Source: Streptomyces sp. NBC_01689 (lineage in GTDB: Bacteria; Actinomycetota; Actinomycetes; Streptomycetales; Streptomycetaceae). From it: a DNA stretch of 64,000 nucleotides. This document shows positions 14,033 through 62,100 of this stretch, in pieces; position 1 is the stretch's first letter, and every line of letters starts with the position of its first letter. The stretch is from positions 62,001 through 126,000 of the forward strand of contig NZ_CP109592.1 of the NCBI RefSeq assembly GCF_036250675.1. The letters run 5' to 3'. The notes beneath the pieces were generated by a model, which made no database searches, had not been told where the DNA came from, and worked only from the letters and a program-made list of their open reading frames with translations. A program made the translations under genes and the position numbers.

Positions 14033-15193
14033 ATGAAGAGTGGGTCGAACGGCACGTACGAGCAGGGGACTTCGCGGCCGGAGCCGCGGCCCGGGCCGCT
14101 CGTCCCCCCGGTGCCGGGTCTCGCCGGGCCGCGGTCGGCGGTCGTGGCCGGGCTGGGCGGTTCGGTGCCCGCCACGGTGGTCTCCAACGACGATCTGGCC
14201 GCGGTCCTCGACACCGACGACGAGTGGATCCGCCGCCGTACCGGTATCGGGCACCGGCGGGTGATCGCGCCCGGCCAGTCCACGGGTGACCTCGCCGTCG
14301 AGGCGGCACGCAACGCGCTGGCGTCGGCGGGCCTGGAGCGAGCGGGGGCCGTCGTCCTGGCGACGAGCACCCCGGACCGGCTCTGTCCGGCGACCGCGCC
14401 GCACGTGGCGAGCCGTCTCGGGCTGGGCCCGGTGCCCGCGTTCGACGTGCAGGCCGTGTGCACCGGATTCGTGTACGCGCTGGCCGCCGGCGCCGGGCTG
14501 GTGTCGCTGGGGGTCGCCGACAGTGTGCTGGTGATCGGCGCCGACACGTTCTCGACGATCCTCGATCCCGCGGACCGGGCGACCCGGGTGGTGTTCGGCG
14601 ACGGGGCGGGCGCGGTCGTGCTGCGCGCGGGCGACGCCGCGGAGCCGGGCGCGCTGCTGGGGTTCAGCCTGGGCAGCGACGGCGGCGAGGCCGATCTCAT
14701 CGAGATCCCCGCGGGCGGATCCAGGCAGCGTTCCACCGGTCTGCCGACGAAGACCGAGGACACCTTCTTCACGATGCGGGGCCAGGCGGTCTTCGCTCAG
14801 GCGGTACGCCGGATGGCCCAGTCGGTGGAGGAGATCGCCGCGCTCGCGGGATGGCCGCCGGGGGAGATCGACTCCTTCGTGCTCCATCAGGCCAACGCCC
14901 GCATCCTGACGTCCGTCGCCAGGCGTCTGGGCCTGCCCGCCGGTCGGTTCGCGTCCAACATCGCCGCGCTGGGCAACACGGTCGCCGCGTCGATCCCCCT
15001 CGCGCTCACCGACTGCGCCGCCTCCGGTGCGCTGCGGCCCGGTCAGAGGGTGGTGCTGACCGGGTTCGGCGGTGGCCTCACCTGGGGTTCCACGGCCCTG
15101 GTCTGGCCCGGACTGCGTCCGCTGCGTACAGAACTGCCGGGGTCAAGCGCTGAACCGCCCCTGACGTCAGGTGCCGGAGCCGTTCCCCGCTGA
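14033..15193 (+). CDS. 3-oxoacyl-ACP synthase III (FabH-like), catalytically complete
   Basis: 386 residues from ATG 14033; the start is uncertain because GAGG lies only 3-4 bases upstream, and GTG 13991 is also in frame. Residues about 1-38 precede the KAS III fold (RSAVVAGLGGSVP). The triad is intact: Cys143 (VCTGF), His285 (LHQANARI) and Asn315 (LGNTVAASIP), plus GDGAGAVVL. It should condense an acyl-CoA with malonyl-ACP, or act as an acyltransferase, to make a starter or side-chain acyl group, possibly the donor for the BAHD enzymes (inference). It stands alone between a terminator and the convergent PKS. Confidence 0.85.
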   Translation: MKSGSNGTYEQGTSRPEPRPGPLVPPVPGLAGPRSAVVAGLGGSVPATVVSNDDLAAVLDTDDEWIRRRTGIGHRRVIAPGQSTGDLAVEAARNALASAGLERAGAVVLATSTPDRLCPATAPHVASRLGLGPVPAFDVQAVCTGFVYALAAGAGLVSLGVADSVLVIGADTFSTILDPADRATRVVFGDGAGAVVLRAGDAAEPGALLGFSLGSDGGEADLIEIPAGGSRQRSTGLPTKTEDTFFTMRGQAVFAQAVRRMAQSVEEIAALAGWPPGEIDSFVLHQANARILTSVARRLGLPAGRFASNIAALGNTVAASIPLALTDCAASGALRPGQRVVLTGFGGGLTWGSTALVWPGLRPLRTELPGSSAEPPLTSGAGAVPR

Positions 15194-15311: not shown

Positions 15312-24641
<9,330 letters not shown>

Positions 24642-24702: not shown

Positions 24703-34662
<9,960 letters not shown>

Positions 34663-34853: not shown

Positions 34854-35705
34854 CTAGGGGAAGTCGAGGGCGCCGTCGGGTACGGCGGGCAGCAGGCCGA
34901 GGTCGGCGCTGCGGCCGAGGAGTTCGCGTACGGCGGCGTGGCCTTCGTCGCCGAGTTCCGCGGTGAAGGAGTTGACGTAGAGCTCGATGTGCTGGTCGAC
35001 GACGTCCGTGGCCAGTTCCTGGGCGTGCTCCAGGACGTAGGGGCGGGAGGCGGCGGGGGTGTCCCAGGCGGCGCGGACGGAGGCGCGGACGGCGTCGGCG
35101 AGGGCGGTGAGGCGGGTGGCGCCGAGGGTGCGGCGGGCGATGATGGCGCCGAGCGGGACGGGCAGGGTCGTCTCCTTCTCCCACTCCTCGCCCAGGTCGG
35201 CGACGCTGTGCAGGCCGTAGTGGCGGTAGGTGAAGCGGGCCTCGTGGATGACGAGGCCGGCGTCGACGAGGCCGTCGCGGACGGCGGGCATGATCTCGTG
35301 GAAGGGCAGGACGACGATCTCGCCGACGCCGCCGGGGACGGCGCGGGCCGCCCAGAGGCGGAAGAGGAGGTAGGCCGTGGAACTGGTGCTGGGTACGGCG
35401 ACGCGGGCGCCGCTGAGACCGGCGGCCGGGCCGGCCTGCCGGCGCAGGACGAGGGGTCCGCAGCCGCGGCCGACGGCGCCGCCGCACGGCAGCAGGGCGT
35501 AGGTGTCGAGTACGTGCGGCAGGACGCCGTAGGACACCTTGAGGACGTCCAGTTCGCCGCGTTCGGCGAGCCCGTTGGTGACGTCGATGTCGGCCAGGCG
35601 CACGTCGGTCTCGGGGGCGCCGGGGAGCAGGCCGTGGGTCAGCGCGTGGAAGACGAACGTGTCGTTGGGGCACGGGGAGTGCGCCAGGGTCAGTCGTGAC
35701 GTCAT
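34854..35705 (-). CDS. mqnD: 1,4-dihydroxy-6-naphthoate synthase (MqnD)
   Basis: 283 residues, the usual MqnD length. It starts MTSRLTLAHSPCPNDTFVFHALTHG, the diagnostic MqnD N terminus, and the conserved catalytic His is His154 (LVIHEARFTY). It has a periplasmic-binding-protein-like fold but is cytosolic, with no signal peptide. In the futalosine pathway MqnD cleaves cyclic dehypoxanthinyl futalosine to 1,4-dihydroxy-6-naphthoate. ATG 35705 follows a GAGG. It lies between the PKS operon (same strand) and divergent mqnE, inside a polyketide cluster, which is not where the housekeeping Streptomyces copy normally sits. It may therefore be a dedicated paralogue supplying a starter acid (inference). 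Confidence 0.92.
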   Translation of the reverse strand: MTSRLTLAHSPCPNDTFVFHALTHGLLPGAPETDVRLADIDVTNGLAERGELDVLKVSYGVLPHVLDTYALLPCGGAVGRGCGPLVLRRQAGPAAGLSGARVAVPSTSSTAYLLFRLWAARAVPGGVGEIVVLPFHEIMPAVRDGLVDAGLVIHEARFTYRHYGLHSVADLGEEWEKETTLPVPLGAIIARRTLGATRLTALADAVRASVRAAWDTPAASRPYVLEHAQELATDVVDQHIELYVNSFTAELGDEGHAAVRELLGRSADLGLLPAVPDGALDFP

Positions 35706-36104
35706 GCGGCCCGCCTCATTCTCTGCCGTGAGTGATCCGGTGGCGGCGCTCTCGCGCGCCCCCTCCAGGAAAGCCGGAGTGGGTGTGGGGTTTTCCCCAG
35801 ACTGTCCTCCGCGAAGATGAGGGAGCCTCATCCGACGTGGCCGGATCCCCTGTGTTCCGGTCGGGGAGCGGTCCATGTGCCGTTGTCTCCAGGAGGGTTC
35901 GGGTCCGTCCGTGAAGGGCGGTCCGGCCGGCCTGGGTCGGGTGGCGCGGCTCCGTACCAGTTCCGCCCTGCCGGATCCACGGCGGTGCGAGCCGTCCGCG
36001 AAGACGGGTGGCTCGGCCGGGGCCCGCAGACGAGTTACGTGCCATCCGCGTACTCGCACTCACTACGTGTGCCGCCAGGCACTGACCGAGGAGGTTCCCC
36101 GGTA
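35706..36104. promoter_or_regulatory. Divergent promoter region, mqnD / mqnE
   Basis: 399 bases without a gene. One of the best PimM-like palindromes lies at 35785-35800, 80 bases from the mqnD start. A GAGGAGG ribosome site at 36089-36095 belongs to mqnE. Confidence 0.55.
35785..35800. promoter_or_regulatory. Candidate PAS-LuxR (PimM-like) operator, near-perfect palindrome
   Basis: GTGGGGTTTTCCCCAG: 14 of 16 to CTVGGGAWWTCCCBAG, with a perfect right half. It could serve mqnD (80 bases away) or the mqnE operon (about 305 bases). Confidence 0.5.
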
Positions 36105-37268
36105 ATGGACGCAGGGCTCAAGCGTGAGCTGGAGGAGAAGGTCTACTCCGGTGAACGGCTGTCCCGCGAGGACGGCATCGCGTTGTACGAGTCGGACGAG
36201 CTGGCCTGGCTGGGCGAGCTCGCGCACCATGCGCGCACGGTCAAGAACGGTGACGTGGTCCACTTCAACGTCAACCGTCACCTCAACATGACGAACGTGT
36301 GCACCGCGTCGTGCGCCTACTGCTCGTTCCAGCGCAAGCCGGGCGAGATGGACGCGTACACGATGCGCATCGAGGAGGCGGTCCGTCTCGCCAAGACGAT
36401 GGAGAGCGAGCATCTCTCGGAGCTGCACATCGTCAACGGGCTGCACCCGACGCTTCCTTGGCGTTACTACCCGCGTTCGCTGCGGGAGCTGAAGAAGGCG
36501 CTGCCGAACGTGTCGATCAAGGCGTTCACGGCGACGGAGATCCATCACTTCGAGACGATCTCCGGGCTGCCCGCCTCGGAGGTCCTGGACGAGCTGATCG
36601 ACGCCGGTCTGGAGTCGCTGACCGGTGGCGGCGCGGAGATCTTCGACTGGGAGGTGCGTCAGCACATCGTCGACCACCGCACCCACTGGGAGGACTGGTC
36701 GCGCATCCACCGTCTGGCGCACTCCAAGGGCCTCAAGACGCCGTGCACCATGCTGTACGGGCACATCGAGGAGCCCCGCCACCGGGTCGACCACGTCCTG
36801 AGGCTGCGTGAGCTGCAGGACGAGACCGGCGGTTTCCAGGTCTTCATCCCGCTGCGCTACCAGCACGACTTCGTGGACATGAAGGACGGCAAGGTCCGCA
36901 ACAAGCTGCAGGCGCGCACCCAGATGGCGACCGGCACCGAGGCGCTGAAGATCTTCGCGGTCTCCCGGCTGCTGTTCGACAACGTCCCGCACGTCAAGGT
37001 CTTCTGGGTCATGCACGGTCTGCACACCGCGCAGCTCGCCCTGCAGCACGGCGCGGACGACATGGACGGCTCGGTCGTCGAGTACAAGATCACGCACGAC
37101 GCGGACAACTACGGCACCCCGAACAAGCTGACCCGCGAGGACCTGCTCGACCTGATCCGCGACGCCGGCTTCCGTCCCGTGGAGCGCAACACCCGCTACG
37201 AGATCATCCGCGAGTACGACGGTCCGGACCGCACCCGCCGCGACGAGCCGCAGCCGATGCGTGTCTGA
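36105..37268 (+). CDS. mqnE: Aminodeoxyfutalosine synthase (MqnE), radical SAM
   Basis: 387 residues, the usual length. The radical-SAM cluster motif CxxxCxxC is Cys66-Cys70-Cys73 (VCTASCAYCSF). Further MqnE hallmarks are FNVNRHLNMTNVC, LTGGGAEIFD, QVFIPLRYQHDF and DNYGTPNKLTREDLL. It joins S-adenosylmethionine to 3-[(1-carboxyvinyl)oxy]benzoate (the MqnA product) to give aminodeoxyfutalosine. ATG 36105 lies about 10 bases after GAGGAGG. It heads a plus-strand series (ferredoxin, type II TE, mqnA, mqnC, exporter, loading protein) that is probably one or two transcripts, and is divergent from mqnD. Confidence 0.94.
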   Translation: MDAGLKRELEEKVYSGERLSREDGIALYESDELAWLGELAHHARTVKNGDVVHFNVNRHLNMTNVCTASCAYCSFQRKPGEMDAYTMRIEEAVRLAKTMESEHLSELHIVNGLHPTLPWRYYPRSLRELKKALPNVSIKAFTATEIHHFETISGLPASEVLDELIDAGLESLTGGGAEIFDWEVRQHIVDHRTHWEDWSRIHRLAHSKGLKTPCTMLYGHIEEPRHRVDHVLRLRELQDETGGFQVFIPLRYQHDFVDMKDGKVRNKLQARTQMATGTEALKIFAVSRLLFDNVPHVKVFWVMHGLHTAQLALQHGADDMDGSVVEYKITHDADNYGTPNKLTREDLLDLIRDAGFRPVERNTRYEIIREYDGPDRTRRDEPQPMRV

Positions 37269-37375
37269 CGCGCCGGGCCGTGGCGGACGGTGTGTCCCGT
37301 CCCGGCCTTCCCTCCCCCCTTCACCCCGCGTGCCCCGGTGCGCGGTCTCACGACACGATCGGCAGGCAGGTGGAC

Positions 37376-37678
37376 ATGTCCGAGCAGACGACCGGCGAGC
37401 AGGCCTTCGAGGTCTGGATCGACCATGAGCTGTGCACCGGTGACGGTATCTGTGCCCAGTACGCGCCCGAGGTGTTCGAACTGGACGTGGACGGCATCGC
37501 CTATGTGAAAGACGAGGACGACGAGCTCCTGCAGGAACCGCGTGCCACCACGCGGATCCCCCTGGAGCTTCTGCCGGACGTCGCCGACTCCGCCAAGGAG
37601 TGCCCCGGCGAGTGCATCCATGTGCGCCGTGTCGCCGACTCCGTCGAGGTGTGGGGTCCGGAGGCGGAGAGCGCCTGA
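37376..37678 (+). CDS. Ferredoxin, [3Fe-4S] type, within mqn block
   Basis: 100 residues from ATG 37376, with a weak CAGGTGG upstream. The cluster motif is CTGDGIC plus ECPGECIHV, as in Streptomyces cluster-borne ferredoxins; the acidic linker between (DEDDELLQEP) is longer than in the 65-residue ferredoxin at 9075. Its position 107 bases after mqnE and before the type II TE suggests it serves enzymes of this block (the radical-SAM enzymes need reducing equivalents) or a P450. This is inference from location only. Confidence 0.85.
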   Translation: MSEQTTGEQAFEVWIDHELCTGDGICAQYAPEVFELDVDGIAYVKDEDDELLQEPRATTRIPLELLPDVADSAKECPGECIHVRRVADSVEVWGPEAESA

Positions 37679-37764
37679 GGCTCCGCCGCCCCGCAGCCAG
37701 TTCCGCACCGCCCACCGGCCCCTGTGCCGGGTGCGCCGATTTCCCGGAAGGACATCCGCGTCTC

Positions 37765-39590
<1,826 letters not shown>

Positions 39591-39642
39591 CACCCCCGCC
39601 ATGACCAGGAAGACCATCCACAGCCCCGGAAAGGCCGGCACC

Positions 39643-40848
39643 ATGCCCCGACCTACCCCGTCCCCGTTGCAGTCCGTCCTCGACCGTGCCGCCGAAGGCG
39701 GGCGCATCACCCCGGAAGAGGCCCTCGACCTCTACCGTGACGCTCCGCTGCACGCGCTGGGCGCCGCCGCCGACGCCGTACGCCGCCGCAAGTACGCCGG
39801 TACCGAGCACATCGCGACGTACATCATCGAGCGGAACATCAACTACACCAACGTGTGCGTCACGGCGTGCAAGTTCTGCGCCTTCTACGCCGCGCCGAAG
39901 GACACCGCCAAGGGCTGGACCCGCGACCTCGACGACATCCTGCGCCGCTGCGCGGAGACCGTCGAACTCGGCGGCACCCAGATCATGTTCCAGGGCGGCC
40001 ACCACCCCGACTACGGCGTCGAGTACTACGAGAAGCACTTCTCCGCGATCAAGGAGAACTTCCCCCAGCTGGTCATCCACTCGCTGGGCGCCTCCGAGGT
40101 CGAGCACATGGCCCGGATCTCCAAGGTCGGCGTGGAGGAGGCCATCACCCGCATCCACCAGGCGGGCCTGGACTCCTTCGCGGGCGCCGGCGCCGAACTG
40201 CTGCCCGCCCGCCCGCGCAAGGCCATCGCCCCGCTCAAGGAGTCCGGCGAACGCTGGCTGGAGATCATGGAGATCGCGCACGGCCTGGGCGTCGAATCCA
40301 CCTCCACCATGCTCATGGGCACCGGCGAGACCAACGCCGAGCGCATCGAGCACATGCGCATGATCCGCGACGTACAGGACCGCACCGGCGGTTTCCGCGC
40401 CTTCATCCCGTACACCTACCAGCCCGAGAACAACCACCTCAAGGGCCGCACGCAGGCCACACTCTTCGAGTACGTACGGATGATCGCCGTCGCGCGCCTG
40501 TTCCTCGACAACGTCCGTCACATCCAGGGCTCCTGGCTGACCACCGGCAAGGAGGCGGGCCAGCTGACCCTGCACTACGGCGCGGACGACCTCGGCTCGG
40601 TGATGCTGGAGGAGAACGTCGTCTCCTCGGCCGGCGCCAAGCACCGCTCCAACCTGGTGGAGCTGCTCACGCTGATCCGCGGTGCCGGGCGGGTGCCCGC
40701 GCAGCGCTCCACGACGTACGAGCACCTCAAGGTCAACGACGACCCGGCGAACGACCCGGTCGACGAGCGGGTCGTCTCCCACATCTCGTCCACCGCGATC
40801 GCGGGCGGCACCGCCCACCCCGAGCTGAAGCTGATCTCCGCGAACTGA
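39643..40848 (+). CDS. mqnC: Cyclic dehypoxanthinyl futalosine synthase (MqnC), radical SAM
   Basis: 401 residues from ATG 39643, chosen because GGAAAGG lies 8 bases before it; ATG 39601 in the same frame lacks such a site. The radical-SAM triad is Cys72-Cys76-Cys79 (VCVTACKFCAFY), with IIERNINYTN before it and FQGGHHPDYGVEYYE after it, all typical of MqnC. It cyclises dehypoxanthinyl futalosine to the spiro compound that MqnD splits. The exporter ATPase gene starts 38 bases downstream, so the transport and starter genes are probably co-transcribed. Confidence 0.94.
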   Translation: MPRPTPSPLQSVLDRAAEGGRITPEEALDLYRDAPLHALGAAADAVRRRKYAGTEHIATYIIERNINYTNVCVTACKFCAFYAAPKDTAKGWTRDLDDILRRCAETVELGGTQIMFQGGHHPDYGVEYYEKHFSAIKENFPQLVIHSLGASEVEHMARISKVGVEEAITRIHQAGLDSFAGAGAELLPARPRKAIAPLKESGERWLEIMEIAHGLGVESTSTMLMGTGETNAERIEHMRMIRDVQDRTGGFRAFIPYTYQPENNHLKGRTQATLFEYVRMIAVARLFLDNVRHIQGSWLTTGKEAGQLTLHYGADDLGSVMLEENVVSSAGAKHRSNLVELLTLIRGAGRVPAQRSTTYEHLKVNDDPANDPVDERVVSHISSTAIAGGTAHPELKLISAN

Positions 40849-40886
40849 CGAAGTCCCACCGAACGCAGAAACAGGACGGAGAAGCC

Positions 40887-41879
40887 ATGCCGGGCGCCAT
40901 CCACGCTGAGGGCCTCGTCAAGACCTTCGGGAAGATCCGGGCTCTCGACGGAGTCAGTCTCACGGTCCCGGAGGGCACCGTGCTGGGTCTGCTGGGCCCC
41001 AACGGGGCGGGCAAGACCACCGCGGTCCGGGTGCTCACCACCCTGCTGCGCCCCGACGCGGGCACCGCCACGGTCGCGGGCCACGACGTGGTCCGCGCCC
41101 CGGACCTGGTACGCCGGTCGATCGGGCTGTCCGGTCAGTTCGCGGCCGTCGACGACCGGCTGACGGGCCGTGAGAACCTGCGCATGATCGGCGAGTTGTA
41201 CGGCATGCGGAGCGGCGCGGCCCGGCGGCGGGGTGAGGAGCTGCTCGCGCAGTTCGAGCTGACCGGGGCCGCCGACCGGGTGTCCACCACGTACTCGGGC
41301 GGCATGCGCCGCCGGCTCGATCTGGCGTGCGCGCTGGTGGTGCGGCCGTCGGTGATGTTCCTCGACGAGCCGTCGGTGGGCCTCGACCCCACCAGCCGCC
41401 TGCTGCTGTGGGAGGCCATCGACCGGCTGGTCGACGCGGGCACCACCCTGCTGCTGACCACGCAGTACCTGGAGGAGGCCGACCGCCTCGCCCGGGACAT
41501 CGCCGTCGTCGACCAGGGCCGGATCATCGCCCAGGGCACACCGCGCGAGCTCAAGACCCGCACCAGCCGGCAGCAGATCGAGATCGTCGTGGAGCGCGCC
41601 GAGCAGATCGCGGGCGCCGCCGCGCTGCTGGGCCGCTTCAGCACCCGCGCACCCGACGTGGACCGGGCCAGGTCACTGGTCTCCGCGCCGGTGGACGGCG
41701 GCGTGCACCTGCTGACCGAGGTCATCGGCGCCCTGGCCGGCGCCGGGATCGAGATCAGTGACATCAGCCTGCGCCAGCCCACCCTCGACGAGGTGTTCCT
41801 GGCCCTGACGGACCCGCCCCGCGGTGACCGGTCCGAGCCCGTGATGGCCTCGGCCGGCGCGTCGAACGAGAAGGAGTGA
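40887..41879 (+). CDS. ABC exporter ATP-binding subunit, DrrA type
   Basis: 330 residues. Walker A is GPNGAGKTT, the signature is YSGGMRRRLDLA, and Walker B is VMFLDEPSVGLD. It has the extended C-terminal region seen in DrrA-type drug exporters. It forms a two-component transporter with the next gene, whose start overlaps the stop (TGATG). It would export the finished compound and give self-resistance. ATG 40887 follows GGACGGAGAAG. Confidence 0.93.
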   Translation: MPGAIHAEGLVKTFGKIRALDGVSLTVPEGTVLGLLGPNGAGKTTAVRVLTTLLRPDAGTATVAGHDVVRAPDLVRRSIGLSGQFAAVDDRLTGRENLRMIGELYGMRSGAARRRGEELLAQFELTGAADRVSTTYSGGMRRRLDLACALVVRPSVMFLDEPSVGLDPTSRLLLWEAIDRLVDAGTTLLLTTQYLEEADRLARDIAVVDQGRIIAQGTPRELKTRTSRQQIEIVVERAEQIAGAAALLGRFSTRAPDVDRARSLVSAPVDGGVHLLTEVIGALAGAGIEISDISLRQPTLDEVFLALTDPPRGDRSEPVMASAGASNEKE

Positions 41880-42736
41880 TGACCGTGGCATGGGCGGTAC
41901 AGTCCCGCGACGGGGACGCCCTGCGCCCCGCGTCCGCGGCGAAGGCGATCCACGACGTGGTCGTGATCACCCGGCGCAACATGATCAGGATGATCCGCAT
42001 CCCCGAGGTGCTGGTCCTCAGCCTCGTGCAGCCGATCGTGTTCGTCCTGCTCTTCGCCTACCTCTTCGCGGGCTCCTTCGCGCTGCCCGGCGCGGGCGGC
42101 CCGGAGGCCTACCGCGAGTACATGATGCCCGGCTTCTTCGCGCAGACCATCGCCTTCGCGACCGCCAGCAACAGCAGCGTGGGCATGGCCAACGACCTCA
42201 AGAGCGGCATGGTCGACCGGTTCCGCTCACTGCCCATGGCCCGCAGCGCGCTGCTGACCGGCCGCGCGGTGGCCGACCTGGTGCAGAACTCCGCCGTGAT
42301 CGTGGTGATGGTGGGCTGCGCCCTGATCGTCGGCTGGCGCATCCACCACGGATTCCTGCACGCGGCCGCGGCGTTCGGGCTGCTGCTCCTGCTCGGCTAC
42401 GCCCTGTCGTGGGTGGGTGTGCTCATCGGTCTGTCGGTCCGCGCGCCGGAGGCCGCCGCGACCGGCAACTTCCTGTGGCTGTTCCCGCTGACCTTCCTGT
42501 CCAACGCGTTCGTCGCACCGTCCACGCTCCCGGCCCCGCTGCGTTTCGCGGCGGAGTGGAACCCGCTCACGGCCACCGTCCAGGCGGCCCGTGACCTGTT
42601 CGGCAACCCGGGGCTGCACGCGACGACGGGCTGGCCCGCCGAGCACGCCGTGGTGGTGTCCGTGGGCTGGTCGGTCGTCATCGCCCTGGTGTGCCGGACG
42701 CTCGCGGTGCGCCGCTACCGCTCGTCCGCCGCCTGA
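41879..42736 (+). CDS. ABC-2 type exporter permease, DrrB type
   Basis: 285 residues if ATG 41879 (overlapping the previous stop) is used; GTG 41885 is better spaced from AAGGAG and could be the true start. There are about six hydrophobic membrane segments, for example VLVLSLVQPIVFVLLFAYLF, AVIVVMVGCALIVGW and FGLLLLLGYALSWVGVLIG. The ABC-2 permease signature surrounds NDLKSGMVDRFRSLPM. It is the membrane partner of the preceding ATPase. Confidence 0.92.
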   Translation: MTVAWAVQSRDGDALRPASAAKAIHDVVVITRRNMIRMIRIPEVLVLSLVQPIVFVLLFAYLFAGSFALPGAGGPEAYREYMMPGFFAQTIAFATASNSSVGMANDLKSGMVDRFRSLPMARSALLTGRAVADLVQNSAVIVVMVGCALIVGWRIHHGFLHAAAAFGLLLLLGYALSWVGVLIGLSVRAPEAAATGNFLWLFPLTFLSNAFVAPSTLPAPLRFAAEWNPLTATVQAARDLFGNPGLHATTGWPAEHAVVVSVGWSVVIALVCRTLAVRRYRSSAA

Positions 42737-42765
42737 CCGCAGGGAGTCCGAGGAGCGTGAGTGAC

Positions 42766-45700
42766 ATGTTCCGTGCCGATCTCGTCCGGCCGCTGCACGA
42801 GCTGCTCGCCGAACACGCCGAGCGGCGGCCGCGGCAGCCCGCGTTCCGTGACGCGCACCGTTCGGTGACGTACGCCGAACTCGCCCTGCGTACCGCCCGG
42901 GTGGCCGGTCACCTCGCCGAACTGGGTCTGCAGCGCGGGGCGCGGGCCGTGATCTATCTGCCCAACCGGGTGGAGACGGTGGAGAGTTACCTGGCGATCA
43001 CGCGGGCGAGCGCGGTCGGTGTGCCGCTCAACCCGCAGTCCACCGACGCCGAGCTGTCCTTCCTGCTGGACGACTGCGCGGCCCGCATGGTGATCACCGG
43101 GGTGGCCCAACTGCCGCAGGTGCGGCGGGTCCTGGTCGACCGTCCGGGGGTCGCGGTGGTGGTCGTCCCGGATCCCTCGGGCCCCGGCGAGGACCACGGC
43201 CTGCCGCGTTACGAGACGCTGGCGACGACCTGGTCGATACGTCATCCCCCGCGCGACGACCTGGGTCTGGACGAGCCGGCGTGGATGCTCTACACGTCCG
43301 GCACCACGGGCCGTCCCAAGGGCGTGGTCTCCACCCAGCGGTCGTCGCTGTGGGCGACCGGCGCCTGCACCGCCCCGGTCCTCGGGCTGTCGCCCGAGGA
43401 CCGGGTGCTGTGGCCGATGCCGCTGTTCCACGCCGTCGCGCACAACGTGTGCGTGCTCGGGGTGGTGGCGGTCGGCGCGACGGCCCGGATCACCGACGGG
43501 CTGGCCGCGGACGAGATCCTGCGCACGGCCCGGGAGGAGCGCTCCACGTTCCTCGTCGGGGTGCCCACGATGTACCACCACATGGTCGAACAGGCCCGGT
43601 CCGACGGCTTCGACGCCCTGGCGGACCTCCGGCTGTGCATGGTCGCGGGCTCCTCCTGCCCGGTGTCGCTGCACGAGTCGTTCCGCGCCGCGTTCGGCCT
43701 GCCCCTGCTGGACAGTTACGGCAGCACCGAGACCGGCGGCGCGATCACCACCAACCTCCCCCAGGGCCCGTACGTGCCGGGCTCCTGCGGGCTGCCCGTG
43801 CCGGGGCTGACACTGCGCCTGACGGACCCCCGCACCGGGGAGGAGGTGCCCGGCGGCGCGGAGGGCGAGGTGTGGGTCTCCAGCCCCGCGCTGATGCTCG
43901 GCTACCACCGCCAGGAGGAGGCGACGGCCTCCGTGCTGAGCGACGGCTGGTACCGCACCGGCGACATCGCCTGGCAGGACGGGGCCGGATACGTCACGAT
44001 CAGCGGCCGGCTGAAGGAACTCATCATCCGCGGCGGCGAGAACATCCACCCGGGCGAGATCGAGAAGGTGCTGGGCCGGGTGGAGGGCGTCGCGGACGCG
44101 GCCGTGGGCGCACTGCCGCACGACACGCTCGGCGAGGTGCCGGTGGCGTACCTGGTGCGCGGCCCGGGCGGCATCGACACGGAGACGGTCCTGGCCGCGT
44201 GCCGCGCGGAGCTGTCGGCGTTCAAGCTGCCCGAGGAGCTGTACGAGGTCGACGAGATCCCCCGCAACCCCGCCGGGAAGATCGCCCGCAAGCGGCTGGC
44301 CGGGCTGCCCGGCCGGCTGCTGTGGCGCCGGGCCCAGACGGCGGAGCGGTCCTCGCGGGTCTACGAAGGGGCCCTGGAACTCGGCCTGGTGGACGGTGCG
44401 CACCCGCTGCTGCAGGCCGCGATCGAGCTGCCCGGCGGGGACGGCGTGCTGTTCGCGGGCCGGCTCGAGGGCGGCGGGAACACGGTGCCGGCCTCGCGCA
44501 CGGTGGCCGGCCGGGCCGTCGTGGCGCCCGCGGTCCTCACCGAACTGGTGCTGCACGCCGGGGAGCACGTCGGCTGCGGGCATCTGGTGGAACTGAGCAC
44601 CGGGGAACCGCTGGTGCTGCCCGAGCGGGACGGCGTCCAGCTGCGGGTGAGTGTCGGGGCCGCCGGTGACGAGGGCCTGCGTCCCGTGACCGTGCACGCC
44701 CGGCGGGACGGCGAGGGCGCGGCCGGACGGCCCTGGACCCGGCACGCGTCCGGCACCCTCGCGCCCGGCCTGCCCGGCCCCGACGACCCGGGTGAGCCGG
44801 CCGTGTGGCCGCCCGCGGGGTCCCGGCGCGTCCCCTTCGAGGAGCTGCCGTCCGATCCCGGCGACGGCGTGCCGCGGGAGCTGCGGACGGTGTGGCGGCG
44901 CGACGGTGAGCTGTTCGCCGAGGTCGCGCTCCCCGACGACAGCCGGGAGCAGGGCGCCCTGTTCGGACTGCACCCGGCCCTGCTGGACGCGGTGGTACGG
45001 CCCCTGCTCCTGCACACCCGAGTGGATCCGTCGGTCCAGGCGCCCGCGCCGGACGCCGACGGCCTGTGGTGGCCGGACTCCTGGCACGGGGTGACGCTGT
45101 ACGCCTCCGGGGCGTCGGTGCTGCGGGTACGGGTTCGGCCGCGCCCCGACGGCGGGTTCGGCATCGAGGCCGCCGACGCGGCCGGGGATCCCGTACTGAG
45201 CGTGGAGTCGGTGGCCTCCGGGGGGCTGGCCCGCTCCGCCCCGGCCCGGGCCTCGGCCCTTCAGCAGGACGGCCTGTTCACCCAGGTGTGGGACGACGTG
45301 CGGCTCACGCCGGCCGCGCGGCACGGGGACGAGCGGTGGGCGGTGGTCGGGGACGATCCGTTGCGGGTCCGTGCCGGCCTGATGGCCGCCGGGCGCTACT
45401 CGGAGACCTATCCGGACCTCGGCACCCTCGCGAAGGCCGTCTCGGACGGCGGCGCGCCGCCGCACGTCGTGGTCGTCTCCCCCGCCCCGGGCGCCGGGAG
45501 CGGGGCGGAGGCCGCGGACGCGGTGCGCGGCGCCGTGCGCGAAGGCCTGGAGTGGGCGCGCCGGTGGGGTGATCCGCTGTTCGCGGACAGCCGTCTGGTC
45601 GTGGTGACCCGCGGCGCGGTGCCCGCCGGGGAGGACGCCGCGGTGCCGGATCTGCCGGCCGCCGCCCTGTGGGGGCTGGTCGGCGCGGCGCAGGACCGGG

Positions 45701-46827
45701 CCCCCGGCCGTTTCGTCCTGGTCGACACGGACGCCTCCAAGCGGGCCTGGCGCGTCCTGCCGGACGCGGTGGCCTCGGGCGAGCCCCGGCTGGCGCTGCG
45801 CGGCCGTACGGTGCGGGTGCCGCGCCTCGCCCGCGTCGGGCCCGGGACCGGCTCGCCGGTGCCCGCCCCGCGCGGCACGGGCCCGCTGCTGGTGGTGCGG
45901 GCCGGGGCGGCCGCACCGGTCGGACGCCTGTCGGCCGGACTCGGCTCGCGTGAGGTGCTGCTGGCCGACACCGCGGGACCGGAGGCCGCCGCGGGGGCAG
46001 AGGTGCCGGGCGCGTCCGTGGCCGGGTGGGACGCGGCGGACCCGGTGGCGTCCGTGCGCCCGCTGCGGGCGGCCGGTCCTTCGGCCGTGCTGTTCGCGGC
46101 GGCCGTGCACCTCGCCTCCGAGGGCCCCGACGGCGATGTCGACGCGGTGCTGCGGCCGGTCGTCGACACCGCGCTCGCGCTCGGTGACGGGCTCGCGGCC
46201 GGGGACGTGGACACGTTCGTGCTCAGCTCCCCCGGCCCCTCGCCGGCCGCCCCCGGGCTGGTCGCCGAGGCCGCCGGCGCGTTCCTCGACGCGTGGGCGG
46301 TGCGGCTGCGGGCCGCCGGTGTGCCGGCCGTGTCGGTGCGCGGTGCCGATCTCGCCTCGGGTGAGGCCCTCGACCTCTTCGACGCGGCGCGCTCGCTGGG
46401 GCTGCCCGCGGTCGTCGCCGCGCGCACCCCGCTGGGCGGCACCGGTTCGCCCGGCCCGCTCACCGGCTCGGCCGCGCTGCGGCGCGGTCTGGTGCGCGGT
46501 GCGGGCCGCCGGGTGGCCCGTGACGCGGTGACGGACCCGTCCGGGCTGCGGCACCGGCTGGCGGCCCTGTCGGACGCGGAGCAGGAGCAGTCCCTCATCG
46601 ACCTGGTGTGCGGGCACTTCGCCGCCTCCCTCGGACTCTCCGGCGGCGCCCAGGTGCCGCCGGACGGCGAGACCCGGGAGCTCGGCTTCGACTCGCTGAC
46701 GGCGCTCACCGCGCGCAACGCGCTGGTCGAGGCGACCGGGCTGCCGCTGTCGGCGGCCGTGGTGTTCGACTTCGCCACGCCGGCCGGGCTCGCCCGCCAT
46801 CTGAAGAAGGAGCTGCTCGCCCGCTGA
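42766..46827 (+). CDS. Stand-alone PKS loading protein: acyl-CoA ligase - dead DH - dead KR - ACP
   Basis: 1353 residues from ATG 42766 (AGGAG 10 bases upstream; GTG 42757 also possible). Residues 1-520 are an adenylate-forming domain: YTSGTTGRPKGVV (about 176), YGSTETGG (about 320), WYRTGD (about 393) and NPAGKIARK (about 502). Residues about 545-820 resemble a PKS dehydratase, but the catalytic His is Arg (RTVAGRAVVAP); only the second-site HPALLDA remains. Residues about 835-1225 resemble a KR, but the GGTG site and the Ser/Tyr of the active site are gone. ACP: GFDSL, Ser about 1310. There is no KS or AT, and the protein ends right after the ACP without a docking tail. CoA-ligase loading modules activate free acids in rapamycin- and candicidin-type lines. 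Here the mqn genes next door suggest an aromatic acid. Confidence 0.88.
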   Translation: MFRADLVRPLHELLAEHAERRPRQPAFRDAHRSVTYAELALRTARVAGHLAELGLQRGARAVIYLPNRVETVESYLAITRASAVGVPLNPQSTDAELSFLLDDCAARMVITGVAQLPQVRRVLVDRPGVAVVVVPDPSGPGEDHGLPRYETLATTWSIRHPPRDDLGLDEPAWMLYTSGTTGRPKGVVSTQRSSLWATGACTAPVLGLSPEDRVLWPMPLFHAVAHNVCVLGVVAVGATARITDGLAADEILRTAREERSTFLVGVPTMYHHMVEQARSDGFDALADLRLCMVAGSSCPVSLHESFRAAFGLPLLDSYGSTETGGAITTNLPQGPYVPGSCGLPVPGLTLRLTDPRTGEEVPGGAEGEVWVSSPALMLGYHRQEEATASVLSDGWYRTGDIAWQDGAGYVTISGRLKELIIRGGENIHPGEIEKVLGRVEGVADAAVGALPHDTLGEVPVAYLVRGPGGIDTETVLAACRAELSAFKLPEELYEVDEIPRNPAGKIARKRLAGLPGRLLWRRAQTAERSSRVYEGALELGLVDGAHPLLQAAIELPGGDGVLFAGRLEGGGNTVPASRTVAGRAVVAPAVLTELVLHAGEHVGCGHLVELSTGEPLVLPERDGVQLRVSVGAAGDEGLRPVTVHARRDGEGAAGRPWTRHASGTLAPGLPGPDDPGEPAVWPPAGSRRVPFEELPSDPGDGVPRELRTVWRRDGELFAEVALPDDSREQGALFGLHPALLDAVVRPLLLHTRVDPSVQAPAPDADGLWWPDSWHGVTLYASGASVLRVRVRPRPDGGFGIEAADAAGDPVLSVESVASGGLARSAPARASALQQDGLFTQVWDDVRLTPAARHGDERWAVVGDDPLRVRAGLMAAGRYSETYPDLGTLAKAVSDGGAPPHVVVVSPAPGAGSGAEAADAVRGAVREGLEWARRWGDPLFADSRLVVVTRGAVPAGEDAAVPDLPAAALWGLVGAAQDRAPGRFVLVDTDASKRAWRVLPDAVASGEPRLALRGRTVRVPRLARVGPGTGSPVPAPRGTGPLLVVRAGAAAPVGRLSAGLGSREVLLADTAGPEAAAGAEVPGASVAGWDAADPVASVRPLRAAGPSAVLFAAAVHLASEGPDGDVDAVLRPVVDTALALGDGLAAGDVDTFVLSSPGPSPAAPGLVAEAAGAFLDAWAVRLRAAGVPAVSVRGADLASGEALDLFDAARSLGLPAVVAARTPLGGTGSPGPLTGSAALRRGLVRGAGRRVARDAVTDPSGLRHRLAALSDAEQEQSLIDLVCGHFAASLGLSGGAQVPPDGETRELGFDSLTALTARNALVEATGLPLSAAVVFDFATPAGLARHLKKELLAR

Positions 46828-46991
46828 ACCAGGCGGTCCGACAGGCCCGTTGAGGCGGGATCCCCCAGGCCGGGCGGTGCGGCACCCGACGGTGGTGCCG
46901 CGCCGCCCGGCGCCGTCGTGACGCGGGAGGTCCGCCGTCATGACGCCGCATGACAGACAACGCCCCAAGGCGGAAGAGGAGAAGAAGGCAG

Positions 46992-48023
46992 ATGAGGGTC
47001 GAGAACGTGCACATCGAATCGCTGGGCGTCGTGCTGCCCGAGTGGGCCGACGCCCTGCAGGCCGTGGCCGAAGGGAGGCTGGACGGCGAGATCCAGGCGG
47101 CGAACGGGCTGACGGGCACGCATGTCGCCGGTGACGTGCCGGCCATGGACATGGTCGTGGCGGCGGCGCGGACCACGCTGGGGCGCTCGAAGACCGACCC
47201 CGAGGACCTCGGGGCGTACATCCACAGCGCCGTCCACTACCAGGGCCCCGACGGCGCCTACCCGCCCGGCTACATCCTGCGGGAGCTGGGGCTGGGCAAC
47301 ATTCCCGCGCTCTACCTGCAGCAGGGCTGCGACGGCATGCTCAGCGCCCTGGAGGTGGCGATCGGCAAGCTCACCGGGGCCGCCGGGGCGGGCTCGGTGC
47401 TGCTGACGACGGGCGAGAACTTCTCCTCGCCGCAGATGGACCGCTGGAAGGGCTTCGGCCAGGCGTACATCCTCGGCGACGGCGCGGCCGCGGTGCTGGT
47501 GAGCGACGAGGGGGGCTTCGCCGAGGTGCGCTCCCTCAACTCGGGGGTGCTGCACGAGCTGGAGTCGTGGCACCGCGGGGACGGGCCGCTGCTGCTGCGC
47601 GAGGACACCGGGACGGTGGCCGGCATGGTCGAGCGGGCCGAGCAGTTCAGCGAGCGGATGCCGCTGTCGGAGACGATGGAGAAGCTGACCCTGTTCGGCC
47701 TGGACATGATCCACCGGTCGCTGGTCGACGCCGGTCTGAACGCGTCCGACCTCACCAAGGTGGTGCCGATCAACATGGACGGCCGGATGATCGAGTACTC
47801 GATCATGCTGCCGCTCGGGCTGACCATGGCGGAGTGCAGCTGGGACTTCGGCAGAACGGTCGGGCACGTGGGCGGCGCCGACGTGTTCATCTCCCTGGAG
47901 CACCTGGTGCGCACGCGCGAGGTGGGCCCGGGCGACAACGTCCTGCTGTTCTCCCAGGGTCCGGGATGGCTGTGCAGCGCGGCCGTGCTCACCATCACCG
48001 ACACGCCGCACTGGGCGGTCTGA
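46992..48023 (+). CDS. KAS III-like protein with atypical active site
   Basis: 343 residues from ATG 46992, which has AGGAGAAGAAGG directly upstream (ATG 46950 in frame is less likely). It has a thiolase fold with nucleophile Cys113 (QQGCDGMLSALEVAIG) and the GDGAAAVLV loop. The usual HQAN is replaced by PINMDG (residues 259-264), and the Asn position reads GHVGG (His292). It is therefore unlikely to be a decarboxylating condensing enzyme. Acyltransferase activity of the kind known from CerJ-like KAS III proteins is more plausible. It is placed directly after the loading protein, which has no docking tail, so it may pass the starter on, or modify it (inference). Confidence 0.8.
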   Translation: MRVENVHIESLGVVLPEWADALQAVAEGRLDGEIQAANGLTGTHVAGDVPAMDMVVAAARTTLGRSKTDPEDLGAYIHSAVHYQGPDGAYPPGYILRELGLGNIPALYLQQGCDGMLSALEVAIGKLTGAAGAGSVLLTTGENFSSPQMDRWKGFGQAYILGDGAAAVLVSDEGGFAEVRSLNSGVLHELESWHRGDGPLLLREDTGTVAGMVERAEQFSERMPLSETMEKLTLFGLDMIHRSLVDAGLNASDLTKVVPINMDGRMIEYSIMLPLGLTMAECSWDFGRTVGHVGGADVFISLEHLVRTREVGPGDNVLLFSQGPGWLCSAAVLTITDTPHWAV

Positions 48024-48128: not shown

Positions 48129-59120
<10,992 letters not shown>

Positions 59121-59185
59121 GCGTGTTCACCCGTTCCCCAGTCCCGTGTCGCGTGTCGTCGCCCTGGCCGGCCGTCGCGGCGGCC

Positions 59186-62100
59186 TCAGGAGATTCCAAG
59201 ATCGTTCTCGATGAAGTCGAAGATCTCGTCCGCCGCTGCGGAGTTGATCCGGTCGCTGACGTCGTCGGTCGCCGGTGCCGTGAGGACCGGGCCGCGGTCC
59301 GGGCCGTCCCAGCGGGCCAGCAGGGAGCGCAGCCGGGCGCCGATCCGGTCCCGTCGCGTGTCGTCGTCCGCGAGGTCCGTCAACGCGGTCTCCAGGCGGT
59401 CGAGTTCGGCGAGCGCCCGGCCCGCGCCGTCCATGCCCTCGGTGAGCCGGCCGCGCAGGTATCCGGCGAGGGCCGTCGCGTTGGGCTGGTCGAACAGGAG
59501 CGTGGCGGGCAGGGCCAGGCCGGTGGCGGTGCCGAGCCGGTTGCGCAGTTCGACGGCGGTCAGGGAGTCGAAGCCGAGGGCGTTGAACGCCTGGGCGGCG
59601 CCGACCTTGTCGGTGGAGGCGTGGCCGAGGACGCCGGCGGCCTGGCCGCGGACCAGGGCCAGGAGCGTGCGCTCCTGCTCGGCGGCGGACTGCTCGGCCA
59701 GCCGGGCGCGCAGGGTGGTGGCGGCGGCGTCCCCGCCCGGGGCCGCCGGGCGGGCGGCCGCGAGGTCGCGGAGCTCCGGCAGGTCGGACAGGAGCGGGCT
59801 GCGCCGGGCCGAGGTGAAGCCGGGCGCGAAACGTGTCCAATGGACGTCGGCGACGGTCACGGCCGCGTCCGGGCGGGCCACGGCCCGGCCCAGGGCGGCC
59901 GGGGCGTGCTCCGGGTCCAGCGGGTTCATGCCGCTGCGCCGCATGCGTTCCTCGGCCCCGGTGTTCTGCGCGGCCATGCCGCCGCCGGCCCACGGCCCCC
60001 AGGCCAGCGAGGTGCCGGGCAGTCCCGCGGCGCGGCGCTGCTGCGCGAGGGTGTCCAGACAGGCGTTGGCGGCGGCGTAGTTGGCCTGGCCGAGGGTGCC
60101 GAGGGTGCCGGAGACGGACGAGTACAGCACGAAGGCGGACAGGTCCCGGTCGCGGGTGAGGTCGTGCAGGTTGCGGGCGGCGGCCAGCTTGGGGCGCAGC
60201 ACGGTCTCCAGGCTCTCGGGCGACAGGGTGTCGATGAGCCGGTCGTCGAGGACGCCCGCGGTGTGGATCACGGCGTCCACGGGGTGCCGGGCCAGGAGCG
60301 CGGCGAGCGCGTCGCGGTCGGCGACGTCGCAGGCGGCGATCTCCAGTTCGGTGCCGGTGCCCTCCAGCGCGGCCTTCAGCCGGGCCGCGCCCTCGGCGCC
60401 GGCGCCGGAGCGGCTGACGGCGAGTATCCGTGCGGCGCCCTGCGCGGCGAGCCACGCGGCGGTGTGCACGCCGAGGGCGCCGGTGGCGCCGGTCAGCAGG
60501 ACGGTGCCGTGCCAGGCGGGGGCGGCGGCGGGTTCGGAGCCGGCCGGGATCCGCTCCAGCCGGCGCAGAAAGGTGCCGGAGCCGCGGACCGCGACCTGGT
60601 CCTCCCCGTCGCGGCCGGTCAGGACGGCGCTCAGCCGGCGGCCGATGTCCTCGGCGATCGGGGTGCCGGTGGTGCCGGGGAGGTCGACGAGTCCGCCCCA
60701 GCTCTGCGGGTGTTCGAGGGCCGCGGTGCGGCCGAGGCCCCAGACGGCGGCCTGTTCGGGCGCTTCAGGTGCTTCCTGGGCGTGGATGCCGACGGCGCCG
60801 GCGGTCAGGCACCACAGGGGTGCGGTGCCCGCGCCGTCCGGGCCGTCCAGGGTGTCGGAACTGTCGGAGAATGCCTGGACGAGCGCGGCGGTGGCGGCGA
60901 GGCCGCTCGGGGTGGAGGGGTGGTCCGGCAGCGGCCGGGTGTCGGCGGCGAGCAGGGACAGGACGCCGCCGAGGCTCCCGCCGTCCGTCGTCGCGAGGGC
61001 GTCGCTCAGCCGGGCGGCCAGGGTGACGCGGTCGGCGGACGCGCAGTCGACGGGCACGCTCACCACGTGGGCGCCGTGCGCGCCGAGCGCGGCGGCGACC
61101 GAGGCGGCCCAGGCGCCGTCCGCGTGGCCGGCGGGGACGGGCAGCAGCCAGGTGCCGGTGAGGGCGGCGGCCTCCTCGACGGCCGGCTTCCACACGACGC
61201 GGTGCTCCCAGCCCTGTGCCCGGGACGTCTGCCGGCGCTCGCGGCGCAGGGAGGAGATCGCGGGCAGGACCGCGCTGAGCGGTGCGTCGGTGTCCAGGCC
61301 GAGGCGGTCGGCGAGGTCCTGCGGGCCGGCCTGTTCGACGAAGTCCCAGAACCGGCTCTCCTCACCGGAGTCGGCCGGTTCGGCGGCCCCGGCGGGCTGC
61401 GCGGAGGACTGGAGCCAGTAGCGCTCGCGCTGGAAGGCGTAGGTGGGCAGTTCGCCGCGGAGCGCGTCGGGGTCGTGCAGCGCGGCCGGGTCCAGCTCGG
61501 CGCCGCGGGCGTGCAGCAGGCCCGCGGCGAGCAGGGCGGCGCGGCGCTCGTCGCCCTCGCGGCGCATCAGCGGTGCGGCGGCGGCCGTCGTGGGGTCGGT
61601 GACGCTGTCGAGGGCCATCGTGGTCAGCGTGGCGTCGGGGCCCAGTTCGAGGTACGTGGTGACGCCGAGGGCCTCCAGGGCGCGCGCGCCGTCGCAGAAG
61701 CGGACCGCGTCGCGCACATGCCGGCGCCAGTAGGCCGCGGTGCGCAGGTCGTCGCCCTCGGCGAGGCGTCCGGTGACGTTGGAGACCACGGGCAGGGCGG
61801 GCGGGCCGTAGGTGACGCGTGCGGCGACCTGTTCGAACTCGTCGAGCATGGCGTCCATGCGGGCGGAGTGGAAGGCGTGGCTGACCCGCAGGCGCCGGGT
61901 GCGGCGTCCGCGCCCGGCGAGGACGGCGGCGATCCGCTCCACCTCGTCCTCGTCGCCGGAGAGCACGACCGAGGCGGGGCCGTTGAGCGCGGCGATGCCG
62001 GCGCGGCCTCCGTTCTGGTCGCTCCGGTCGTTCTGGTCGAGGAGTTGGCGTACCTCTTCCTCGGTGGCTTCGACGGCGGTCATCGCGCCGCCCTCGGGCA

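What the first reader, a model, noticed from the sequence alone, without database searches (positions are those of the whole stretch)
34854..48023. Futalosine (menaquinone) enzymes built into a polyketide cluster beside a CoA-ligase loading protein: possible naphthoate or carboxyvinyloxybenzoate starter unit
Seen: MqnD, MqnE, MqnA and MqnC homologues with intact radical-SAM and catalytic motifs, interleaved with a type II TE, a ferredoxin, an exporter and a loading protein whose first domain activates a carboxylic acid. Known: these enzymes make 1,4-dihydroxy-6-naphthoate from chorismate, and Streptomyces housekeeping copies are scattered, not grouped in PKS clusters. Inference: this set is a dedicated paralogue that supplies an aromatic starter acid. 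I do not know a described PKS primed this way. Alternatives: the extra copies give resistance to a product that hits the menaquinone pathway, or they are the organism's only copies.
Basis: partly seen in the sequence, partly recalled or inferred. Interest (0 to 1): 0.9.

Follow-up and report, generated by a model that had tools for sequence, protein, structure and literature searches.

The report
Vitamin-K enzymes making an antibiotic's naphthoquinone
A soil bacterium appears to use a spare set of vitamin-K-making enzymes to build a naphthoquinone cap for a large sugar-decorated antibiotic; this trick was published in 2016 for a sister compound, but this version carries a more complete enzyme set and seems to use simpler attachment machinery.

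Summary
Observation confirmed: MqnD, MqnE, ferredoxin, type II TE, MqnA, MqnC, an ABC exporter pair, a CoA-ligase/ACP protein and a KSIII-like protein lie together at 34854-48023 inside a macrolide PKS cluster. They are not the sole copies: housekeeping MqnA-E lie elsewhere, and the cluster copies of MqnA and MqnD group apart from housekeeping ones. A dedicated mqnB lies 30 kb beyond the window. The main PKS is not primed by naphthoate: its loading domain is a KSQ. Its 18 extension modules and TE fit a 32-membered polyol macrolactone. The same idea is published for PM100117/118 (gon cluster, 2016), where the acid becomes a naphthoquinone on a sugar. Best reading: a langkolide-like relative in which 1,4-dihydroxy-6-naphthoate is loaded by the CoA-ligase protein onto its own ACP and moved to a deoxysugar by a ChlB3/CerJ-type KSIII acyltransferase. 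New against gon: mqnB in the cluster, a SAM synthetase/nucleosidase pair at the cluster edge, and no naphthoate-primed side PKS (GonP8); no methyltransferase was found either. New variant of a known kind; product, ligase substrate and attachment point are inferred.

The parts
34854..35705 (-). MqnD-type 1,4-dihydroxy-6-naphthoate synthase, cluster paralogue
   Evidence: PF02621; 69% to housekeeping copy L002; cluster rows apart, branch 100/99
36105..37268 (+). MqnE aminofutalosine synthase (radical SAM)
   Evidence: TIGR03700 over cut-off; CxxxCxxC present; 92% to housekeeping L026
37370..37678 (+). 4Fe-4S ferredoxin, possible reductant of the radical SAM enzymes
   Evidence: PF13459
37600..38529 (+). 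type II thioesterase (start uncertain; the ORF as listed overlaps the ferredoxin gene)
   Evidence: PF00975 201 bits
38691..39590 (+). MqnA chorismate dehydratase, cluster paralogue
   Evidence: PF02621; 69% to housekeeping L001; cluster rows apart, branch 100/99
39643..40848 (+). MqnC cyclic dehypoxanthinyl futalosine synthase (radical SAM)
   Evidence: TIGR03699 over cut-off; 92% to housekeeping L021
40887..41879 (+). ABC exporter ATPase (DrrA-like)
   Evidence: PF00005, PF13732
41879..42736 (+). ABC-2 permease
   Evidence: PF01061
42766..46827 (+). CoA ligase - DH - relic KR - ACP protein (GonSL-like): proposed to load the naphthoate on its own ACP
   Evidence: PF00501, PF13193, PF21089, PF22953, PF00550; KR Tyr and NADPH motif absent
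46992..48023 (+). KSIII-like acyltransferase (ChlB3/CerJ type), proposed to move the naphthoyl group to a sugar OH
   Evidence: nearest solved structure ChlB3, then 7vyu, 9z38, CerJ, DpsC; Cys-His-Asp as in ChlB3; the FabH HQAN stretch reads INMD (PMC9573744 passages)
48129..59120 (-). last two PKS modules and TE (GonP7-like)
   Evidence: Pfam, domain map
59186..64000 (-). PKS, two modules, runs beyond the window to chromosome 131532
24703..34662 (-). PKS, two modules (probably modules 6-7, by analogy with gon)
15312..24641 (-). PKS, two modules (probably modules 8-9, by analogy with gon)
14024..15193 (+). FabH-type KSIII (Cys-His-Asn kept), role unclear
   Evidence: PF08545/PF08541; nearest solved structure FabH 2x3e; no hit in the mapped stretches of G253, G013, G392, G169
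12319..13704 (+). PF02458-type (BAHD-like) acyltransferase with HSLADG, candidate for an acetyl or malonyl ester on the macrolactone
   Evidence: PF02458; motif
1..492 (-). part of a second PF02458 acyltransferase (chromosome 61128-62492)
9691..10839 (+). cytochrome P450
   Evidence: PF00067
10903..12123 (+). cytochrome P450
   Evidence: PF00067
7718..8971 (-). glycosyltransferase
   Evidence: PF21036, PF06722
2091..3338 (-). glycosyltransferase
   Evidence: PF06722
6523..7533 (-). NDP-glucose 4,6-dehydratase
   Evidence: PF16363
806..2107 (+). DegT-family protein, probable NDP-hexose 3,4-dehydratase (433 aa, same length as GonD3)
   Evidence: PF01041; RfbH model NF011936 645.7 bits against a cut-off of 423; GonD3 length
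3425..4012 (-). dTDP-sugar 3,5-epimerase
   Evidence: PF00908
4220..5203 (+). NDP-4-ketohexose reductase candidate
   Evidence: PF01370
5741..6529 (-). SARP regulator
   Evidence: PF03704, PF00486

Best explanation
This is the naphthoquinone (NQ) sub-cluster of an 18-module glycosylated macrolactone cluster, a relative of the PM100117/118 and langkolide kind. MqnA, MqnE, MqnB, MqnC and MqnD (all five dedicated copies in one cluster, mqnB outside the window) convert chorismate and SAM to 1,4-dihydroxy-6-naphthoate; the ferredoxin may serve the radical SAM steps. The CoA-ligase domain of the 1353-aa protein adenylates the acid and puts it on the ACP of the same protein, whose KR part is a relic. 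The ChlB3/CerJ-type KSIII then moves the naphthoyl group to a hydroxyl of the deoxysugar chain that two glycosyltransferases build on a KSQ-primed macrolactone of predicted 32-membered ring size. Shown: gene content, separate grouping of MqnA and MqnD, KSQ, module count, relic KR, acyltransferase triad. Inferred: substrate of the ligase, point of attachment, product. A SAM synthetase and nucleosidase at the cluster edge may supply SAM to MqnE and MqnC and remove adenosyl by-products (inferred).
For: Second copies of MqnA/D, MqnC/E and MqnB in the same genome. Trees: cluster MqnA (11 rows against 16 housekeeping) and MqnD (12 against 17) lie on one side of a 100/99 branch; 9 of 10 cluster MqnB group at 100/99. 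Loading KS with Gln for Cys, also in G253 and G392 (the loading KS of G013 lay outside the fetched stretch). 18 extension modules plus TE; as in gon, YASH-type AT in the loading unit and modules 1-4, a module with DH but no KR in the five-module protein followed by a module whose AT lacks HAFH, and a YASH AT in the penultimate module (against PMC4763440 section 7). Notonesomycin, a 32-membered relative, also has 18 modules and an aromatic acid with two deoxysugars at C-37 (PMC7081687 section 7); langkolide is 32-membered with a disaccharide and NQ at C-37 (PMC10669366 passages). KSIII triad as in ChlB3. In gon, loss of gonM4, gonSL, gonS1 or gonS2 gives NQ-free macrolide, with traces of product left in the gonM4 mutant. 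In the survey 11 distinct genomes besides the window's have extra mqnA/D, and 9 of these 11 a second mqnB; 7 genomes with a KSIII homologue but only housekeeping mqnA/D have one mqnB each.
Against: The strain was not identified and no product is known to me. Gon has GonP8 and GonMT, both needed there; neither was found here, so the NQ unit may differ or be finished by genes elsewhere. The FabH-type KSIII at 14024-15193 is unexplained. Ligase specificity was not tested; its nearest solved structures are malonyl-CoA, fatty-acyl-CoA and feruloyl-CoA ligases. KSIII identity alone does not mark NQ clusters: G171 (59% over 275 residues) and G180 (56%) have no extra mqnA/D, while G155 (59%) has. The MqnB of G155 groups with housekeeping rows; G239 and G253 have no second mqnB. 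The penultimate AT did not match my GHSxG pattern.
Confidence: 0.82

Rival explanations
1. Naphthoate primes the macrolide PKS itself: the CoA-ligase protein is the loading module of the assembly line.
For: The CoA-ligase protein has the parts of a loading protein; a CoA-ligase-ACP-primed side PKS is proposed in gon and seen in G013 and G169.
Against: The main line has its own KSQ-AT-ACP loading module. The CoA-ligase protein has no KS or AT. In G013 and G169 the side PKS is a protein apart from the main line.
Confidence: 0.04
2. The naphthoate is first extended by one propionate unit as in gon, with the FabH-type KSIII (14024-15193) and a borrowed methylmalonyl-ACP replacing GonP8, and only then transferred.
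For: The FabH-type KSIII keeps Cys-His-Asn; the NQ units of PM100117/118 and cyphomycin carry a three-carbon link (PMC5103430 and PMC6355912 passages).
Against: G253 lacks both the side PKS and this KSIII in 180 kb mapped, G392 in 140 kb (the G392 stretch lacks the sugar-gene end, so its absence is weaker). The KR Tyr of the CoA-ligase protein is missing in all 27 aligned rows. No AT outside a module was seen in the mapped 204 kb.
Confidence: 0.15
3. The extra Mqn copies give self-resistance to a product that inhibits the menaquinone pathway.
For: MqnC and MqnE are 92% identical to the housekeeping copies, as resistance duplicates can be; an exporter lies beside them.
Against: All steps A to E are duplicated, not one target; the genes are linked to a CoA-ligase/ACP protein and an acyltransferase; deletion of gonM4 in the sister cluster lowers the product and gives NQ-free macrolide.
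Confidence: 0.03

Closest known systems
gon cluster of PM100117/PM100118, Streptomyces caniferus GUA-06-05-006A (PMC4763440)
   Same: mqnA, mqnC, mqnD, mqnE homologues with ferredoxin and thioesterase; CoA-ligase-DH-KR-ACP protein (GonSL) with degenerate KR and DH; KSIII proteins; KSQ-primed macrolactone PKS; deoxysugar genes and P450; ABC transporter genes.
   Different: Here 18 instead of 20 extension modules, mqnB in the cluster (external in gon), no GonP8 found, no methyltransferase found, two rather than four glycosyltransferases found, SAM synthetase/nucleosidase pair and two PF02458 acyltransferases present (not in the gon table).
Langkolide (32-membered, disaccharide, 1,4-naphthoquinone at C-37, acetyl at C-23; PMC10669366 passages)
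   Same: Predicted ring size, two glycosyltransferases, NQ genes, acyltransferase candidates for an acetyl ester.
   Different: No langkolide gene cluster turned up in searches, so identity cannot be tested; the exact NQ substitution of langkolide was not seen.
Notonesomycin nbc cluster (PMC7081687, section 7)
   Same: 18 PKS modules, 32-membered ring, aromatic acid plus two deoxysugars at C-37, two glycosyltransferases, P450s, an acyltransferase, SARP.
   Different: The acid is 4-amino-3-hydroxybenzoate; notonesomycin A is sulfated; three P450s.
ChlB3 / CerJ KSIII-like acyltransferases (PMC9573744, passages)
   Same: Cys-His-Asp triad with the same spacing, full-length similarity.
   Different: Donor and acceptor here are inferred; ChlB3 moves 6-methylsalicylate to an ACP, CerJ malonyl to a sugar hydroxyl.

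Membership tests
gon-type (PM100117/118) cluster in the strict sense | mqnA/C/D/E paralogues beside housekeeping copies | tested here: met
gon-type (PM100117/118) cluster in the strict sense | GonSL-like CoA-ligase-DH-KR-ACP protein | tested here: met
   compared by architecture, GonSL's own sequence was not at hand
gon-type (PM100117/118) cluster in the strict sense | KSQ-primed multimodular PKS with terminal TE and 20 extension modules | tested here: not met
   KSQ and TE present, but 18 extension modules
gon-type (PM100117/118) cluster in the strict sense | GonP8-like side PKS primed by the naphthoate | tested here: not met
   next full-length ligase-domain hits in the genome are 37% or less; the 18 extension modules are accounted for by the main line. 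So this is a relative, not filed as a gon cluster
gon-type (PM100117/118) cluster in the strict sense | GonMT-like C-methyltransferase | tested here: inconclusive
   no methyltransferase family among the called genes scanned, but GonMT's own sequence was not at hand and four PKS proteins were mapped mostly by domain comparison
Naphthoquinone macrolactone clusters (broad) | product carries a naphthoquinone on a sugar | not testable with these tools
   needs chemistry
ChlB3/CerJ KSIII-like acyltransferase | Cys-His-Asp triad, FabH HQAN lost | tested here: met
   triad from PMC9573744
ChlB3/CerJ KSIII-like acyltransferase | acyl transfer without condensation | not testable with these tools
   needs an assay
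Futalosine pathway enzymes | MqnC, MqnE and MqnB equivalog models over cut-off | tested here: met
   MqnA and MqnD only by PF02621, no NCBIfam model hit

The most novel reading that the evidence does not exclude
A self-contained, SAM-fed futalosine branch for an antibiotic: all five mqn steps plus a dedicated SAM synthetase and nucleosidase that supply SAM to the radical SAM enzymes and clear their adenosyl by-products, with unextended naphthoate passed straight from the CoA-ligase's ACP to a sugar. The family then forms a series with zero (here, G253, G392), one (gon) or two (G013, G169) naphthoate-primed extension modules between ligase and acyltransferase.
Probability: 0.45. Interest if true: 0.55.

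Novelty: new variant of a known kind. Interest (0 to 1): 0.42.

Why it matters
It shows how a primary respiratory-quinone pathway is duplicated whole and tied to an acyl-loading and acyl-transfer unit on a shared macrolactone scaffold. The predicted difference from gon (no chain extension, no ring methyl) can be tested by mass alone. The apparent series of 0, 1 and 2 extension modules offers a natural set for engineering the quinone cap, whose loss weakens PM100117/118. The edge-located SAM synthetase/nucleosidase pair makes it testable whether SAM supply limits radical-SAM-built chromophores.

Tried and rejected
Starter-unit reading: rejected for the main PKS because of the KSQ loading domain. 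Sole-copy reading: rejected. Resistance: kept at 0.03. FabH-type KSIII as the general extension enzyme: weakened because G253 (and less firmly G392) lacks it in the mapped stretches. The left-flank operon (A domain, carrier protein, PigA/RedW-like dehydrogenase, cupin, transglutaminase-like) was considered as part of the cluster; those genes gave no hit in the fetched stretches beyond the nucleosidase in G393, G169, G226, G110 and G013 (about 2 to 20 kb each), so only nucleosidase and SAM synthetase were kept. The ligase's nearest solved structures did not decide its substrate. No structure prediction was run.

Limits: the survey took 392 genomes of the genus drawn from a larger group. G239 and G394 appear to be one genome (same contig numbers and positions). 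G013, G226, G110 and G393 look closely related, so counts are not independent events. L044 could not be searched as a genome. G164's third PF02621 match was not followed. The Mqn trees used sequences that passed identity and length filters (45, 40 and 35% for A, D and B), minus L046 and two duplicate own-genome rows; row L211 (G155) was labelled cluster because it is that genome's extra copy, its neighbours were not seen. MqnC and MqnE trees were not built. Alignment A1 holds the window protein and 26 relatives picked from the 120 listed. All genome searches (12 of 12) were used, so the nucleosidase's frequency in the genus at large was not measured.


Full report
What is there. The window is positions 62001-126000 of a 9,909,705-base contig. 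The finding's ten genes are present. The cluster extends beyond the window on both sides, roughly chromosome 58-189 kb, and lies in a terminal inverted repeat: 140,000 bases compared between the two arms are 99.996% identical, and mirrored hits run out to about 277 kb. So the genome holds two copies.

Dedicated copies. PF02621 finds MqnA/MqnD at six places: a pair in each cluster copy, and one each at 4,521,050 and 5,492,362. MqnC/MqnE have further copies at 4,517,045 and 4,527,797. MqnB has a copy at 5,493,239 and one at 156,146 in the repeat, next to a sugar nucleotidyltransferase and between PKS genes. Identities of cluster to housekeeping copies: A 69, D 69, B 65, C 92, E 92%. In unrooted trees the cluster MqnA (11 rows) and MqnD (12 rows) separate from housekeeping rows (16 and 17) on a branch with support 100/99; 9 of 10 cluster MqnB group at 100/99, the tenth (G155) falls with the housekeeping rows.

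The PKS. Domain mapping gives a loading KS-AT-ACP and 18 extension modules over seven proteins, the last ending in a TE. The loading KS has Gln in place of Cys, so the chain starts from a decarboxylated extender. AT motifs: YASH in the loading unit and modules 1-4, HAFH with a DH in module 5; the five-module protein has a module with DH but no KR, followed by a module with neither motif matched; the penultimate module has YASH although its GHSxG was not matched (that YASH means methylmalonyl is stated in PMC4763440). The gon paper lists the same pattern. The order of modules 6-9 is inferred from gon. With 18 extensions and a propionate start the chain has 39 carbons, the start carbonyl becomes C-37 and the module-4 ketoreductase makes the C-31 hydroxyl, which gives a 32-membered lactone with C-37 free for sugars (my calculation). 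Notonesomycin (18 modules, 32-membered, acid and two sugars at C-37; PMC7081687 section 7) and langkolide (32-membered, disaccharide and NQ at C-37, acetyl at C-23; PMC10669366 passages) fit this.

The loading protein. It is CoA ligase - DH - KR-like - ACP. In all 27 rows aligned the KR active-site Tyr is missing; the NADPH motif is also gone in the window's subgroup, while a few rows (P0033, P0034, P0039, P0041) still have it. So it most likely works as a ligase with its own ACP. Besides the mirror copy, the next full-length ligase-domain hits in the genome are 37% or less. In G013 and G169 a separate protein (4174 and 4115 aa) with CoA ligase-ACP and two KS-AT-DH-KR-ACP modules lies beside the KSIII, and there no ACP was detected on the GonSL-like protein; in G253 and G392, as here, no side PKS is seen and the ACP is kept. 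One search shows no ACP on that protein in G226, G110, G393 and G302 either, each with a PKS ACP beside the KSIII, and an ACP in G239. L044 and L045 have both an ACP on the first protein and a second CoA-ligase protein, so the pattern is not strict.

The transfer enzyme. The KSIII at 46992-48023 is nearest to ChlB3, then 7vyu, 9z38, CerJ and DpsC. It keeps the Cys and has a GHVGGAD stretch that lines up with ChlB3's His and Asp (Cys113, His296, Asp301; PMC9573744 passages), while the FabH HQAN stretch reads INMD. CerJ moves a malonyl unit to a sugar hydroxyl (same passages). I infer that this protein moves naphthoyl to a sugar. In four more distant homologues (G117, G014, G125, G350) the Cys is Ser.

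Distribution. 27 of 392 genus genomes, the window's included, have this KSIII at E 1e-60 or better. Of 19 genomes examined for mqn (18 distinct), 11 distinct ones have extra PF02621 copies and 7 have two only; the other 11 of the 27 show one or two, G164 three. KSIII identity does not separate the groups sharply: G171 (59% over 275 residues) and G180 (56%) lack extra copies, G155 (59%) has them. Counting the window's genome, a second mqnB is present in 10 of 12 distinct NQ-type genomes, absent in G239 and G253; the seven others have one each.

SAM genes. Next to the left acyltransferase gene lie a SAM synthetase (59021-60232) and a nucleosidase (58283-58981; model NF004168, 226.9 bits against a cut-off of 129). 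The nucleosidase is found in 7 of 19 genomes searched, all NQ-type (own, G013, G226, G110, G302, G169, G393), missing in five NQ-type genomes (G253, G239, G392, G155, G395) and in all seven genomes with housekeeping mqn only. In five of the seven (G013, G226, G110, G302, G393) the match is listed with one stop inside it, which I did not follow. In all seven it lies beside a SAM synthetase, and in six beside the same acyltransferase gene (in G302 the contig ends at the synthetase). A second SAM synthetase alone is not specific: several genomes without the nucleosidase also have two or three. MqnE builds the adenosyl part of SAM into its product and MqnC uses SAM as radical source (recalled), so this pair may feed and clean up the pathway. 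Solved relatives of the nucleosidase are MTA/SAH nucleosidases (best E 1.3e-12), with aminodeoxyfutalosine nucleosidases weaker, about 1e-6.

What is known. The gon paper (outline and abstract, passages, sections 6 and 14, part 1 of section 7) describes the same idea in 2016, with knockouts. A second gon-like cluster has its futalosine hydrolase far away (PMC6746918 passages). Cyphomycin's NQ is an ester on a sugar (PMC6355912 passages). I found no paper on a cluster with mqnB inside or on a langkolide gene cluster in searches, which cover only the open library and of which I saw listings.

Verdict. Real, dedicated and functional-looking, but a variant of a described kind with new details. Interest 0.42.

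Noticed in passing
chromosome C1:58283-60232, about 2-4 kb left of the window: SAM synthetase and PRK05634-type nucleosidase pair at the cluster edge; nucleosidase in 7 of 12 NQ-type genomes and 0 of 7 genomes with only housekeeping mqn.
   Followed up: yes
chromosome C1:53540-57600, left of the window: Operon with adenylation domain, carrier protein, PigA/RedW-like acyl dehydrogenase, ectoine-synthase-like cupin and transglutaminase-like protein; looks like a separate pathway for a carrier-bound amino acid. A TrpB-like gene lies at 49885.
   Followed up: partly
window 14024-15193: FabH-type KSIII with intact Cys-His-Asn inside the cluster, not found in the mapped stretches of relatives; role unknown.
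   Followed up: partly
L142, L143, L144, L145 (G014, G117, G125, G350): KSIII homologues about 47% identical in which the catalytic Cys is Ser while the His-Asp pair is kept, in genomes without extra mqnA/D.
   Followed up: no
L161 and L232 (G013), L236 (G169): Side PKS of CoA ligase-ACP and two KS-AT-DH-KR-ACP modules beside the KSIII, one module more than the GonP8 of the gon paper.
   Followed up: partly
whole window: The window lies in a terminal inverted repeat with mirrored hits out to about 277 kb, so the cluster is duplicated; knockouts must hit both copies.
   Followed up: partly
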